A stretch of 64,000 bases of DNA from Myxococcales bacterium (lineage in GTDB: Bacteria; Myxococcota; Myxococcia; Myxococcales; Myxococcaceae). Shown here piece after piece: positions 9,362 to 14,314 of the stretch. The translations under genes were made by a program, and so were the position numbers. Location of the stretch: assembly GCA_020846875.1 (NCBI GenBank), contig JADLDB010000046.1, positions 1 through 64,000 on the forward strand, given 5' to 3'. A model generated the notes under the pieces. It had not been told where the DNA came from and made no database searches. It saw only the letters and a program-made list of their open reading frames with translations. How positions within the stretch are numbered: position 1 is the stretch's first letter; each line of letters starts with the position of its first letter.

Positions 9362-10048
9362 TTACCGTCGTTCCCGCATGGGCCGCACCATTCCGGCCAT
9401 AGGCGACGACACGACTTCACCAATCGCCTCAGTGAACGCCTTGGCCGCTGCCTGCACGTCGGCCAATTCCCCGACGAGGTACCCGCCGGCGAAGTTGGTC
9501 TCCGTGGGCGGCCCGAAGAACTTCGTCAGCTTCACGTTCGCGGCCTTCAGCGCGGCGTCGAGCCCGATGAGCGCCTCCGTCGGCGTGGCGATCACATACG
9601 CCATGGGCTGTCCGGGGCGAATTCCCGCGAGCGGGGCCAGGTACCTTCCGGTCTCCGAGATGACGTGGGGGAAGAACGCCGGTCCCTGGGTCCCCTCGAA
9701 CGCGTAGAAACAGATCGACTTCGCCAACGCCTCCCTCAAGGCCCACAGTCCCTCGGCCACCTCATCGGGGTGAGGCCCGGCGAGGACGCCCAGAATCTCC
9801 CCGCTCGTCGGTCCCGACGCGTTGCCGGCTCCGGCGTAGAAGCTCTTCGCGTACACCACGTCGACGTCGGCGAACTTGGTGGCGTGGTCGAGCGCGGCGT
9901 ACAGCGAGTCATCCTGATCGCACGTCACCAGCCCGGCGGACACGTGGCGCTTCGGATCCAGGCCCACGGCGGCGGCCAACTGCGGCTCCACCTGCTCCAA
10001 CTGCCGGCAGGTCAACAACCTGGGGCGCTGAGGCACGAGCGCGCGCAT
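9362..10048 (-). CDS. eutL: Ethanolamine utilisation microcompartment shell protein EutL
   Basis: The 228-residue protein follows the EutL family end to end: VSAGLVTCDQDDSLYAALD, VVYAKSFYAGAG, SGPTSGEILGVLAGPHPDEV, ISETGRYL, GQPMAYVIATPTEALIGLDA and PPTETNFAGGYLVGE. EutL is a tandem-BMC-domain trimer that forms gated pores in the ethanolamine microcompartment facet. The length is close to the roughly 219 residues of the enterobacterial protein. Its ATG overlaps the eutC TGA by one base, so it is translationally coupled. No other shell protein (EutM/K/S/N), EutA reactivase or transporter is found in the 9 kb downstream or the 50 kb upstream present here. Confidence 0.9.
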   Translation of the reverse strand: MRALVPQRPRLLTCRQLEQVEPQLAAAVGLDPKRHVSAGLVTCDQDDSLYAALDHATKFADVDVVYAKSFYAGAGNASGPTSGEILGVLAGPHPDEVAEGLWALREALAKSICFYAFEGTQGPAFFPHVISETGRYLAPLAGIRPGQPMAYVIATPTEALIGLDAALKAANVKLTKFFGPPTETNFAGGYLVGELADVQAAAKAFTEAIGEVVSSPMAGMVRPMRERR

Positions 10049-10935
10049 CAGCGCTCCGCCGGCCTCTCGCCGGTCAACTTCACGCCCCCGCCGCCGGCAG
10101 CGAACGTCCTCTTCATCAGCTCCGCGCACCGCACGGCCGCGCGCTCGGGCACGAAGCCCAGCTCGCGCACGTTGCTGATGCAGTCCTTTTCCGCGTTGTC
10201 CTGGCCGAGCTTCGGGCCGAACGCGGTGTAGATGCTGAGCGAGTCCCCGGTGCCGAGCCCGGGCCGTTCCCCGACGATGATGACGGTCGACTTCGCGCCG
10301 GACAGCACGCCGATCTGATCCTGCACGCCGATGCGCGCGTACCTCACGAACAAGGGCCTGCCCACGGTGAACCCGGCCGCGGGGAGCTGCGCCTGCAGCG
10401 CCTTCACCAGCGGAGGCCCGTTCTCCAGGAGCGCGGCGGCCGACAACCCGTCCCCGGCGATGAGCTGCACGTCCACCCCGCGGTCGGCTTCCTTCTCGCA
10501 CCTCGCGCGCGACGCCTCCTCGAGGCGCCGGCCCTGGTCGGGGAGCAGGAGGTACTCGGTGTGGTCCTTCGCCTGGGTGCGCAGGGGAATCCACCCCTGG
10601 GCCTCGGCCCAGCCGTCGGGCACCTGGCTCTCGACGGCGTCGATGGCGATGGCGTGATCCGCGCGCAGGCCGAGGTACGACTCGGTGAGGTAGCGGGTGC
10701 CGGTGCGCCCGGTGGCGATGCGCGAGGGCGTCTGCTGCACCAGCTTCTGGAGGACCCCGGCGTTCCTCGGCTGTGGCAGCGGGTGGTGTTCCGGTCCGCG
10801 GGCCCAGGTGCGCTCGGGCTCGGGCTCGTGGCGCGTGACGGGCGCGGGCGTTGAGCCCTGCTCGTCCTTCGCCACCTCGCGCACCACCTCGGTGACGATG
10901 CGGCGAATCAGCGCGACGACGTCGTCCTGGCTCAT
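10048..10935 (-). CDS. eutC: Ethanolamine ammonia-lyase small subunit
   Basis: The 295-residue protein carries the EutC core: SRIATGRTGTRYLTESYL, LRADHAIAIDAV, then GLSAAALLENGPPLVKAL, and IGVLSGAKSTVIIVGERP followed by GTGDSLSIYTAFGPKLGQ, the region that contributes to adenosylcobalamin binding. With EutB it converts ethanolamine to acetaldehyde and ammonia. The ATG at 10935 gives a four-base overlap with the eutB stop. An Arg-rich upstream extension is possible but unlike the family. A variable acidic linker (about residues 20-50) precedes the conserved domain. Confidence 0.95.
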   Translation of the reverse strand: MSQDDVVALIRRIVTEVVREVAKDEQGSTPAPVTRHEPEPERTWARGPEHHPLPQPRNAGVLQKLVQQTPSRIATGRTGTRYLTESYLGLRADHAIAIDAVESQVPDGWAEAQGWIPLRTQAKDHTEYLLLPDQGRRLEEASRARCEKEADRGVDVQLIAGDGLSAAALLENGPPLVKALQAQLPAAGFTVGRPLFVRYARIGVQDQIGVLSGAKSTVIIVGERPGLGTGDSLSIYTAFGPKLGQDNAEKDCISNVRELGFVPERAAVRCAELMKRTFAAGGGGVKLTGERPAER

Positions 10936-12308
10936 GCGCGGAACTCCCGCTCGAAGACGGACGCGTCGCCGGCGCGCTCGGTCAACTTCCCGTTGCGCCA
11001 CAGGCCCATGCGCTCCAGCCAGGCCTCGAACTCGGGCGCGGGCTTGAACCCGTACAGCTCGCGCAGGGCCGCGTTGTTGTGGAACGAGGTGGTCTGGTAG
11101 TTGAGCATCACGTCGTCGCCCATGGGGATCCCCATCAGGTAGTTCACCCCGGCGGAGGCGAGCAGCATCTCCAGGTTCTCCTGGTCGTTCTGATCAGCCA
11201 CCGCGTGGTTGGTGTAGCAGGCGTCGCAGCCCATGGAGATGCCGGTCAGCTTCCCCATGAAGTGATCTTCCAGGCCGGCGCGGGTGATCTCCTTGGCGTC
11301 GCGCAGGTACTCGGGGCCGATGAAGCCGACCACGGAGTTGAGCAGGAACGGCTTGTACCGGCGGGCCAGGCCGTAGGCGCGGGCCTCCATGGTCACCTGG
11401 TCGGTGCCGTGGTGGGCGTTGGCGGACAGCGCGGTGCCCTGGCCGGTCTCGAAGTACATCACGTTGGGCCCCTGCGCCGTGCCTTCGCGCCGGGCCAGGT
11501 CGTAGGCCTCATCGAGCAGGGAGACGCTCACTCCGAAGTTGCGATTGGCGCCCTCGCTGCCGGCGATGGACTGGAACATCAGGTCCAGGGGGGCGCCGCG
11601 GCGCAGGGCCTCCATCTGGATGGTGAGGTGCGAGAGGACGCAGTTCTGCGTGGGCACGCGGTAGCGCCGCATCAAGTCCTTCACCGCGGTGAGGATGTCG
11701 ACGGTGCCGTGGATGTCGCCCGTCGAGGGGTTCACGCCGATCACCGCGTCGCCGTTGCCGTAGGACAGCCCGTCCTTCACCGCGGCCAGCACGCCCTGCA
11801 CGTCGTCGGTGGGGTGGTTGGGCTGGAGCCGGCTGGAGATGCGCCCCTTGAGCCCCAGGGTGTTGTTGCAGCGGACGACCACGCGGATCTTCCGGCCCGC
11901 CAGCACCAGGTCCAGGTTGGACATCAGCTTGGCGACGCCGGCGATCATCTCCGGGGTGAGGCCGGGGGACACGGAGGCGATCTCTTCCCCGGTGGTGCGG
12001 TCGTCGAGGATCCACTCCCGCAGGCGCGCCACCGTCCACGACTTCACCTTCGCCCAGGCCTGCTGATCGAGCCCGTCCACCACCACCCGCGTCACCTCGT
12101 CCGTCTCGTAGGGCACGGACGGCGCGTTGAAGAGCTCCTCCAGGGTGAGCTCGGCCAGCACGCGCTTGGCGGCGGCCAGCTCCCGCATGCTGCGCGCGGC
12201 CAGCCCGGCCTGGCGGTCGCCCGAGCGCACCTCGTTGGCGCGCGCCAGCACGTCCTTCAGCGAAGGGAAGGAGAAGGACTCGCCGTGGACGCGGGCGGAG
12301 AGGGACAC
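10932..12308 (-). CDS. eutB: Ethanolamine ammonia-lyase large subunit
   Basis: Taking the GTG at 12308 gives 458 residues, matching the roughly 453 of characterised EutB, and aligns the N-terminus SFSFPSLKDVLARANEVRSG with the family. The TIM-barrel signatures are complete: LQPNHPTDDVQGV, GDAVIGVNPSTGD, YFETGQGTALSAN, GFIGPEYL, GLEDHFMGKLTGISMGCDA and MGIPMGDDVMLNYQTT. The enzyme is adenosylcobalamin-dependent. The order eutB-eutC-eutL with overlapping ends is a compact operon; the gene upstream (12370) is 61 bp away and unrelated. An upstream start at 12347 would add 13 residues with no family support. Confidence 0.95.
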   Translation of the reverse strand: MSLSARVHGESFSFPSLKDVLARANEVRSGDRQAGLAARSMRELAAAKRVLAELTLEELFNAPSVPYETDEVTRVVVDGLDQQAWAKVKSWTVARLREWILDDRTTGEEIASVSPGLTPEMIAGVAKLMSNLDLVLAGRKIRVVVRCNNTLGLKGRISSRLQPNHPTDDVQGVLAAVKDGLSYGNGDAVIGVNPSTGDIHGTVDILTAVKDLMRRYRVPTQNCVLSHLTIQMEALRRGAPLDLMFQSIAGSEGANRNFGVSVSLLDEAYDLARREGTAQGPNVMYFETGQGTALSANAHHGTDQVTMEARAYGLARRYKPFLLNSVVGFIGPEYLRDAKEITRAGLEDHFMGKLTGISMGCDACYTNHAVADQNDQENLEMLLASAGVNYLMGIPMGDDVMLNYQTTSFHNNAALRELYGFKPAPEFEAWLERMGLWRNGKLTERAGDASVFEREFRA

Positions 12309-12649: not shown

Positions 12650-14314
12650 TCAAGCGCGGCGGCGGCGGCGCGGCGAAGGCTCCTGCCGCAGCGTGGGCGC
12701 CTCGCGCTGCGCCGGCTCTCCGCGCGCCTGGCGGACGCAGGACTCGATGACGCGGCGCAAGGGCTCGGGGACGCCCCTGGGTCCGCGCGCGCTCACCTCG
12801 TCCAGCAGCATCAACGCCAGGCCCGGCTTGGAGTGCTTGCGGATGGCGTGGCGGATGGCGATGGGCGCGGCGCGCTCGCGCACCCGCCCGGTGATGCCGG
12901 CGGCGCGGCGGAAGAAGTCCGAGTAGCCCGACGCCCAGAAGCAGTTCTCCAGGTCGCGCTGAGGCAGCAGCGTCAGGTGCCGCCAGGGCTCTTCCCCTGC
13001 GAGGAAGCCGCGCGCGCGCTCGAGGTAGTTGCGGCCCGCGGTGTCACCGTCGGTCAGCACGTGCCAGCCCATGCCGAGGTGCCGGGCCACCTTGAGCAGC
13101 GGCGGCAGGCCGGCCTGGGCGAACTCGACGCAGTGGATGCCTTCCAGGGTGAAGTCGTAGCCCAGCACCCGGGCCAGCTCGGGCATCAGCCAGAACTCCG
13201 TCTCGCCTTCCACCAGGAGCCACACCCGCCCAAAGCTGGCGTCGGCCCGGCGGCTGCGCAGGTGGTAGGTGTAGCGGCGCTCGTCCTCGGGGCTCAAGCC
13301 GCCCGGGGGCACCTGGAAGGTGGACACCTCGCCGTTCTTCCGCACCAGGCGGCGCAGGCTGGCCACCGGCGCGGCGCCCACCAGCACCGGCGAGTGCGTG
13401 CCGATGACCTTCTGTCCCTTCAGGCGCTCGATGATCCGCCACACGCTGGCCAGCGTCATCGGGTGCAGGTACGCCTCGGGCGCCTCGAGGAGCAGCAGGG
13501 GCCGGCCCAATTGGCGAGGCCTCCCCGTCCAGGCGCGCAGCAGCCCGCCGACCAGCAGCAGGAGGCCAATCTTCGACGCCGCGCTGCCGTGCTCGAGCGC
13601 CAGGGTGACGTCGCGCTGGTGGCGCATCGCAAGGGCGGGGGTGGAGGATGGGGCGGCGGCCGGCGGCTCCATCAACTGCTTGGCCAGCTCCTGGGCGGCG
13701 CGGTAGCCGCGCTCCAGCTTGCGGGCCGAGTCGGTGGCCGGCTCCACCCGCGCGTCGAGTAGTTCGTGGTAGCTGGCTTCGATTTCCCGCAGCAGATCGA
13801 CGTTGGAGGAGGCGGCCACGGGCGAGCTGCGGTCGAGCACCATGCCGGTGGGCAGCCAGAAGACGGGCAGCGCGCCCCGCAAGAAGCCGAGCAGCGCTTC
13901 GCTCTGCTCCACCGCGCCGCCGCTGACGCCATCGACGAAGCGCCACGCCGTCTTCAGCGCGTCCTGGCCGTCGGGGCTCAAGGTCACCTCGAGCTTCACC
14001 CGTCGCTGCGGCGCCTCCTCCAGCCACTTCGCCCACGGGGCCCAGTCCTCGCCGTCCCACGCGCCGCGCTGTGGCTCGAGCAGCTCGAGGACGAGGCGGG
14101 TGGGCCCGCGCTGTCCGTCTTCCCGGGGCAGCACCGAGCGATCGAACGAGAAGCCGTTGGGCGCGCCGCGCCAGCCCAGGGTGAGCGCCAGCGCCTCCAG
14201 GAGCGTGGTGCGGCCGCTGTCGTTCTCCCCGATGAGGACGGTCGTCTCGTCGAAGGCCACCTGGGCGTGGCGCAGCGCCCGGTAGTTCTCCACGGTGAGC
14301 CGCTCGAGGAGCAT
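12650..14314 (-). CDS. YbjD-like OLD family ATPase/Toprim nuclease with altered ATPase motifs
   Basis: The 554-residue protein resembles Escherichia coli YbjD (DUF2813, OLD family) throughout. An SMC-like ATPase occupies about residues 1-335 and a Toprim domain about 365-460 (LLVEGETEFWL, then VLTDGDTAGRNY, with the metal-binding E and DxD intact). The Walker A reads GENDSGRTT, with Arg35 where Lys is expected. The Walker B region reads LLLLEAPEAYLHP, with Ala278 where OLD proteins usually have a second acid. OLD proteins are DNA nucleases linked to phage defence and DNA repair. The C-terminus is Arg-rich. The gene is 15 bp from the downstream MBOAT gene on the same strand. Confidence 0.85.
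   Translation of the reverse strand: MLLERLTVENYRALRHAQVAFDETTVLIGENDSGRTTLLEALALTLGWRGAPNGFSFDRSVLPREDGQRGPTRLVLELLEPQRGAWDGEDWAPWAKWLEEAPQRRVKLEVTLSPDGQDALKTAWRFVDGVSGGAVEQSEALLGFLRGALPVFWLPTGMVLDRSSPVAASSNVDLLREIEASYHELLDARVEPATDSARKLERGYRAAQELAKQLMEPPAAAPSSTPALAMRHQRDVTLALEHGSAASKIGLLLLVGGLLRAWTGRPRQLGRPLLLLEAPEAYLHPMTLASVWRIIERLKGQKVIGTHSPVLVGAAPVASLRRLVRKNGEVSTFQVPPGGLSPEDERRYTYHLRSRRADASFGRVWLLVEGETEFWLMPELARVLGYDFTLEGIHCVEFAQAGLPPLLKVARHLGMGWHVLTDGDTAGRNYLERARGFLAGEEPWRHLTLLPQRDLENCFWASGYSDFFRRAAGITGRVRERAAPIAIRHAIRKHSKPGLALMLLDEVSARGPRGVPEPLRRVIESCVRQARGEPAQREAPTLRQEPSPRRRRRA

What the first reader, a model, noticed from the sequence alone, without database searches (positions are those of the whole stretch)
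9362..12308. eutB-eutC-eutL operon with a lone microcompartment shell protein
The ammonia-lyase subunits are followed by EutL with one- and four-base gene overlaps, so EutL is made with the enzyme. No hexameric shell protein, vertex protein, EutA reactivase, aldehyde dehydrogenase or transporter is nearby. EutL normally sits in a closed shell with several other proteins. Here it may bind the enzyme directly, assemble with shell proteins encoded elsewhere, or be a relic. The overlap with eutC argues for active coupling rather than decay.
Basis: partly seen in the sequence, partly recalled or inferred. Interest (0 to 1): 0.65.

Follow-up and report, generated by a model that had tools for sequence, protein, structure and literature searches.

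The report
Ethanolamine add-on to a split microcompartment
The three genes are a detached add-on that lets a known type of bacterial protein organelle use ethanolamine; the rest of the shell is encoded on other contigs of the same genome, so EutL is not alone, and this arrangement was already outlined in a 2021 survey.

Summary
The operon is real: EutB, EutC and EutL on the minus strand (12308-9362), with 4- and 1-base overlaps. "Lone" is true only locally. The same genome encodes a Haliangium ochraceum (HO)-type microcompartment shell elsewhere: BMC-Ts, aldehyde dehydrogenase, BMC-P, BMC-H and BMC-Tdp on contig C59, and two BMC-P plus a class II aldolase on C131. BMC-Tdp and BMC-P match the solved HO proteins best; BMC-H does too among natural proteins. 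EutC begins with an amphipathic helix and a disordered linker, the architecture of an encapsulation peptide. Among 195 Myxococcota genomes, EutL occurs in 34, of which 32 also have BMC-H. The unfused EutC proteins of shell-less genomes lack the helix. Two related contigs join EutL or EutBCL directly to a similar shell and aldehyde dehydrogenase. Best reading: a satellite "EUT module" that makes acetaldehyde inside the HO organelle, beside an encapsulation-tagged DeoC. Sutter et al. 2021 described such modules. Added here: statistics, targeting evidence, no recognisable EutA in the phylum sample, a module-specific EutL C-terminal tail, and EutL-cobalamin adenosyltransferase fusions in eight contigs. 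Function is inferred; nothing was assayed.

The parts
10932..12308 (-). eutB, ethanolamine ammonia-lyase large subunit (458 aa, GTG start)
   Evidence: PF06751 E 7e-206 and PRK15067 E 3e-200; homologues align from residue 1
10048..10935 (-). eutC, ethanolamine ammonia-lyase small subunit (295 aa, ATG start), 4-base overlap with eutB
   Evidence: PF05985 E 1e-65, PRK05465 over cut-off; overlap read directly
10858..10935 (-). EutC residues 1-26: encapsulation-peptide-like amphipathic helix MSQDDVVALIRRIVTEVVREVAKDEQ
   Evidence: AF2 helix 3-26, pLDDT about 93 over residues 1-20; helical moment 0.69; extension absent in unfused EutC of shell-less genomes
10762..10857 (-). EutC residues 27-58: disordered linker between the helix and the enzyme core
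   Evidence: AF2 block pLDDT about 51-67, no secondary structure
9362..10048 (-). eutL, permuted BMC-T shell protein (228 aa), 1-base overlap with eutC
   Evidence: TIGR04502 E 5e-78 (261 bits, below its 300-bit cut-off), PRK15405 over cut-off; PDB 4edi EutL E 3.5e-58
9365..9385 (-). EutL C-terminal tail RPMRERR, conserved in this lineage and absent from Firmicutes/Actinomycetota EutL
   Evidence: 29 of 30 phylum-survey EutL versus 0 of 23 from Firmicutes/Actinomycetota EUT loci

Best explanation
The operon is a satellite 'EUT module' of a split HO-type bacterial microcompartment. EutC's N-terminal helix brings the EutBC lyase into the lumen of the shell encoded on C59 and C131. EutL inserts as an extra facet trimer that lets ethanolamine enter. 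EutBC turns ethanolamine into acetaldehyde plus ammonia, and the co-encapsulated acylating aldehyde dehydrogenase (C59) turns acetaldehyde into acetyl-CoA, which an unlinked acetate kinase-PduL fusion could turn into acetate plus ATP. A DeoC aldolase with its own encapsulation-like peptide (C18) would feed acetaldehyde from deoxyribose-5-phosphate into the same lumen. Shown: gene content, conservation, co-occurrence, and the predicted helix-linker-core architecture. Inferred: encapsulation, EutL incorporation in the HO shell, and flux.
For: HO-type shell genes elsewhere in the genome; BMC-Tdp best PDB match HO-5816 (E 9e-74), BMC-H best natural match HO-5815 (2e-43), BMC-P best match the HO shell vertex protein of 5v74 (4.5e-39). 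The C59 aldehyde dehydrogenase is of the PRK15398 family that includes EutE/PduP (652 bits) and has its own N-terminal peptide VNESQINAIVEQVVRRLSKELG. EutC helix-linker-core. EutL versus BMC-H: 32/34 versus 39/161, Fisher p 1e-14; EutL versus unfused EutB, p 5e-29, over 20 genera and 10 families. L112 has EutB-EutC-EutL-BMC-H-BMC-P-AldDH-RnfC-like-BMC-Ts-BMC-Tdp plus an ethanolamine permease in one cluster; L116 has EutL beside RpiB-DeoC and a complete shell set. Ethanolamine permease is enriched in EutL genomes, 9/34 versus 2/161, p 2e-6. Prior proposal: Sutter 2021, PMC8217296.
Against: No experiment. Fisher values ignore shared ancestry. HO-type or other BMC-H shells occur without EutL in 39 genomes, so EutL is optional. 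No recognisable EutA in this genome or the phylum sample and no ethanolamine permease over cut-off in this genome. G011 has EutBCL with the peptide but no other BMC-domain match (92% complete). Bdellovibrionota EutC proteins, including the one in the joined locus L112, lack the canonical helix.
Confidence: 0.85

Rival explanations
1. EutBC stays cytosolic; the HO organelle of this genome serves sugar phosphates or nucleic-acid breakdown (DeoC, class II aldolase) and EutL only tunes its permeability.
For: The genome has a DeoC with an encapsulation-like peptide and a class II aldolase next to two BMC-P genes; no EutA or dedicated permease; HO function is described as enigmatic.
Against: EutC has the helix-linker extension only where EutL/BMC-H are present; eutL is translationally coupled to eutBC; L112 is a one-locus ethanolamine compartment with a related shell.
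Confidence: 0.08
2. EutL binds EutBC directly and works without a shell.
For: Translational coupling; G011 shows EutBCL without any other BMC-domain gene.
Against: 32 of 34 EutL genomes have BMC-H; the G148 exception has its shell locus at a contig end and G011 is 92% complete.
Confidence: 0.03
3. The operon is a decaying relic of a full eut locus.
For: Most eut genes are missing from the contig.
Against: Intact frames, about 62 invariant EutL columns over 12 diverse sequences, conserved tail, same operon in 10 families.
Confidence: 0.02
4. EutBCL belongs to another, undetected microcompartment in this genome rather than the HO-type one.
For: The assembly is in 200 contigs.
Against: The genome is scored 100% complete and holds only one BMC-H and three BMC-P genes.
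Confidence: 0.02

Closest known systems
EUT-module satellite loci of HO, SPU3 and SPU6 microcompartments (Sutter et al. 2021, PMC8217296)
   Same: EutB/EutC plus a EutL-type BMC-Tsp encoded away from the main locus of an HO-type BMC; proposed as an ethanolamine extension
   Different: No EutA in this genome or in the 195-genome phylum sample; explicit EutC encapsulation-peptide and EutL tail evidence added here
Haliangium ochraceum BMC (HO-5812 to HO-5816 and the satellite BMC-P pair)
   Same: Same shell protein types; closest solved relatives of BMC-Tdp, BMC-P and (among natural proteins) BMC-H; BMC-P triplet; aldolase beside the satellite BMC-P pair
   Different: This genome adds EutBCL; whether H. 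ochraceum itself has it was not tested
Canonical EUT1/EUT2 loci (Salmonella, Clostridium)
   Same: EutB, EutC, EutL, compartment-type aldehyde dehydrogenase, PduL-type PTAC somewhere in the genome
   Different: Genes are scattered; no EutA/EutH/EutG set; shell is HO-type with BMC-Tdp and only one BMC-H
Metabolosome-free EutBC (Acinetobacter baumannii, PMC9426561)
   Same: EutBC that operates without an identified EutA
   Different: That EutBC is not targeted to a compartment; this one carries an encapsulation-like N-terminus and is coupled to EutL

Membership tests
HO-type BMC satellite EUT module | EutB and EutC with a EutL-type BMC-Tsp in one locus distal to the main locus | tested here: met
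   main locus on another contig
HO-type BMC satellite EUT module | EutA in the module (Sutter lists EutA/B/C) | tested here: not met
   best own-genome EutA match 31 bits over 68 residues; none above 38 bits in 195 genomes while the E. coli control rings. The survey names EutA as part of the module; if it is strictly required, this is a EutA-less variant
HO-type BMC | Shell proteins closest to solved HO proteins | tested here: met
   BMC-Tdp, BMC-P best; BMC-H best natural match; BMC-Ts ties with PduT-like chains, HO-type 5dih E 8e-32
HO-type BMC | Triplet of BMC-P, with an aldolase beside the satellite pair (type I) | tested here: met
HO-type BMC | Core aldehyde dehydrogenase with encapsulation peptide in the main locus | tested here: met
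   (peptide judged by sequence only)
Encapsulation peptide (EutC) | About 18-residue terminal amphipathic helix joined by a disordered linker | tested here: met
   definition from PMC12339742
Encapsulation peptide (EutC) | Directs cargo into the shell | not testable with these tools
   needs a localisation assay
Canonical EUT1/EUT2 operon | Signature enzymes, reactivase, shell and core enzymes in one locus | tested here: not met

The most novel reading that the evidence does not exclude
The HO organelle of myxobacteria is an acetaldehyde hub with exchangeable encapsulation-tagged front ends (DeoC and/or EutBC), in which EutBC works without EutA, and in one lineage the EutL shell protein itself is fused to the cobalamin adenosyltransferase that would supply EutBC's cofactor at the shell.
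Probability: 0.45. Interest if true: 0.6.

Novelty: new member of a known kind. Interest (0 to 1): 0.42.

Why it matters
The HO shell is a widely used model for shell structure and engineering, but its natural function is still called enigmatic. Finding that one of its optional modules is a peptide-tagged ethanolamine lyase, beside a peptide-tagged DeoC, points to acetaldehyde as the common intermediate and makes that function directly testable in myxobacteria. The EutC and DeoC peptides and the EutL tail are also ready-made candidates for loading and decorating HO shells.

Tried and rejected
EutA: the PF06277 matches in 182 of 195 genomes are 26-38 bits over 45-150 residues inside frames mostly of about 410-480 aa; they look like a generic actin-fold ATPase (FtsA-like, by inference) and were rejected as EutA. 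Ethanolamine permease: the own-genome match to TIGR00908 is only 48.5 bits and was rejected. Upstream 92-aa gene and OLD-family gene: no match next to related EutBCL operons, so not part of the module. Literature on EutL pore residues was not available in detail, so pore residues are reported only as conserved columns. The genome-contig scan kept only the best 80 loci, so named cultured HO organisms were not reached. A start-codon guess gave a false long N-terminus for L014, L060, L120 and a few others; those were read by eye.

Full report
Observation. The minus strand of the window encodes EutB (12308-10932), EutC (10935-10048) and EutL (10048-9362), with overlaps of 4 bases (ATGA) and 1 base (TGATG). 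Family matches are strong: EutB E 7e-206, EutC E 1e-65, EutL TIGR04502 E 5e-78 and PRK15405 over cut-off. The contig (C46) has no other BMC-domain or BMC-vertex gene, no PduL and no EutA. So the local observation is right.

EutL is not alone in the genome. Contig C59 carries, in one block on the minus strand, a BMC-Ts (PduT-like), an aldehyde dehydrogenase of the PRK15398 family, a BMC-P, a BMC-H and a BMC-Tdp (CcmP-like). Contig C131 carries two tandem BMC-P genes followed by a class II aldolase. Against solved structures, the BMC-Tdp matches HO-5816 best (E 9e-74), the BMC-P matches the vertex protein of the H. ochraceum shell best (4.5e-39), and the BMC-H matches HO-5815 best among natural proteins (2e-43); the engineered tandem 6ner scores higher. 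The BMC-Ts matches PduT-like chains and the HO-type 5dih about equally. The two satellite BMC-P are divergent and do not single out HO. Shell composition, BMC-P triplet and the aldolase beside the satellite BMC-P pair fit the type I HO microcompartment of Sutter et al. 2021 (PMC8217296).

Targeting. EutC starts with MSQDDVVALIRRIVTEVVREVAKDEQ followed by a proline-rich stretch. AlphaFold2 on an alignment of 33 EutC proteins gives helix 3-26 with pLDDT about 93 over the first 20 residues, a disordered stretch to residue 58, then the core. That is the published definition of an encapsulation peptide: an amphipathic terminal helix of about 18 residues joined by a disordered linker; the EutC peptide of the canonical Eut system is among those tested (PMC12339742). 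In the Myxococcota survey the EutC proteins linked to EutL whose start could be read have such an N-terminal extension; L044 is disrupted. The EutC of four genomes with unfused EutBC but no shell (L014-L017) begins within about 10-20 residues of the core; for L014 the automatic start was wrong and was read by eye. Most Bdellovibrionota relatives and L114 lack the canonical helix; several have a short RWL-like motif instead, so the rule is not universal outside the survey set. The C59 aldehyde dehydrogenase begins with VNESQINAIVEQVVRRLSKELG, and a DeoC aldolase on C18 begins with MAEDVNALVDDITERVRRRLEAFK and a cysteine-rich linker. Sutter et al. noted such DeoC proteins.

Phylum survey. Of 195 Myxococcota genomes, 95 have EutB, 76 a pfam00936 match and 34 EutL. 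Table from those lists: EutL with BMC-H 32 of 34, BMC-H without EutL 39 of 161, odds ratio 50, p 1e-14; EutL with unfused EutB 32 of 34 versus 5 of 161, p 5e-29; the fused EutBC type is depleted in BMC-H genomes, 4 of 58. EutL spans 20 genera and 10 families. These p-values ignore shared ancestry. Of the two EutL genomes without BMC-H, G148 has its shell locus cut by a contig end and G011 is 92% complete. Of the five unfused EutB genomes without EutL, G107 is cut by a contig end just after EutC and the other four have no shell. A EutB tree puts the four shell-less unfused EutB in one clade (SH-aLRT 100) apart from the module clade, which includes Bdellovibrionota. A true ethanolamine permease occurs in 11 genomes, 9 of them with EutL (9/34 versus 2/161, p 2e-6), but not in this genome.

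Physical linkage. In L112 (Bdellovibrionales SZAS-1) EutB-EutC-EutL run straight into BMC-H (78% identical to ours), BMC-P, aldehyde dehydrogenase, an RnfC/PduS-like protein, BMC-Ts and BMC-Tdp, with an ethanolamine permease next door. In L116 EutL lies beside an RpiB-DeoC fusion, two BMC-Tdp, BMC-H, BMC-P, aldehyde dehydrogenase, BMC-Ts and two BMC-P; that locus looks SPU-like. Both show the EUT module joined to an HO-like shell. Sutter et al. describe a comparable SPU6/EUT3 case.

Mechanism (inferred). EutC's peptide takes the lyase into the shell; EutL is an additional facet trimer for ethanolamine entry; acetaldehyde is consumed by the co-encapsulated acylating dehydrogenase; acetyl-CoA is released or handled by the acetate kinase-PduL fusion on C68, which has no visible targeting peptide. 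DeoC would make acetaldehyde in the same lumen. No recognisable EutA exists in this genome or the phylum sample, while the E. coli control rings. The A. baumannii enzyme shows that a EutBC can work without EutA (PMC9426561), so EutA independence is plausible but untested here. An unlinked cobalamin adenosyltransferase is on C9.

Additional observations. EutL of this lineage ends in a conserved RPxRxRR-like tail: 29 of 30 survey EutL, 0 of 23 from Firmicutes/Actinomycetota EUT loci. In eight Myxococcota-related contigs EutL is fused in frame to a cobalamin adenosyltransferase domain (PF01923, E 1e-11 to 5e-14 in the four scanned). No paper in the held library was found that describes this fusion; the library is incomplete.

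Verdict. The finding is real, but its puzzle (a lone shell protein) dissolves: it is a satellite module of an HO-type microcompartment, a kind already described. The evidence gathered makes the encapsulated-ethanolamine reading much stronger for this lineage and shows a EutA-less variant.

Noticed in passing
L127:8001-9269, L128:679-1956, L131:8001-9329, L134:8001-9302, L146:5953-7254, L148:5032-6303, L154:6652-7959, L176:8001-9305: EutL shell protein fused in frame to a C-terminal cobalamin adenosyltransferase domain (PF01923), downstream of EutC, in eight separate contigs; Pfam run on four of them. No published description found in the held library.
   Followed up: partly
L183, L186, L187 (fused EutBC of G102, G121, G045): Fused EutB-EutC proteins of some myxobacteria begin with twin-arginine/lipoprotein-like signals (for example MDRRDFVKTVLGGAAAMAVPVSAAAEP), which would mean export of a B12 enzyme; no signal-peptide predictor was run.
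   Followed up: no
L096:7381-9141 (-), genome contig C68: Acetate kinase fused to a PduL-type phosphotransacylase in one 586-aa protein.
   Followed up: no
L180 (C18 DeoC); EutC of L024, L036, L038, L071, L125: Cysteine-rich segments in the linker between the encapsulation-like helix and the enzyme core, in both DeoC and many EutC proteins.
   Followed up: no
L022, L027, L029, L032 (G071, G068, G069, G072): In one genus EutB is detached from EutC-EutL; in G069 the two lie about 20 kb apart on one contig.
   Followed up: no
L107, L112, L113, L119, L133 (mostly Bdellovibrionota EutC): EutC N-termini lack the usual helix but share a short RWL/SWF-like motif that also occurs in the linkers of L109 and L110.
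   Followed up: no
12650-14314 (-): OLD-like ATPase/TOPRIM nuclease gene (DUF2813, E 1e-36) upstream of a 92-aa gene of no known family and the eut operon; not conserved next to related operons.
   Followed up: no
G146:C568:10320-11612: Ethanolamine permease match with one internal TGA stop in a EutL-bearing genome.
   Followed up: no
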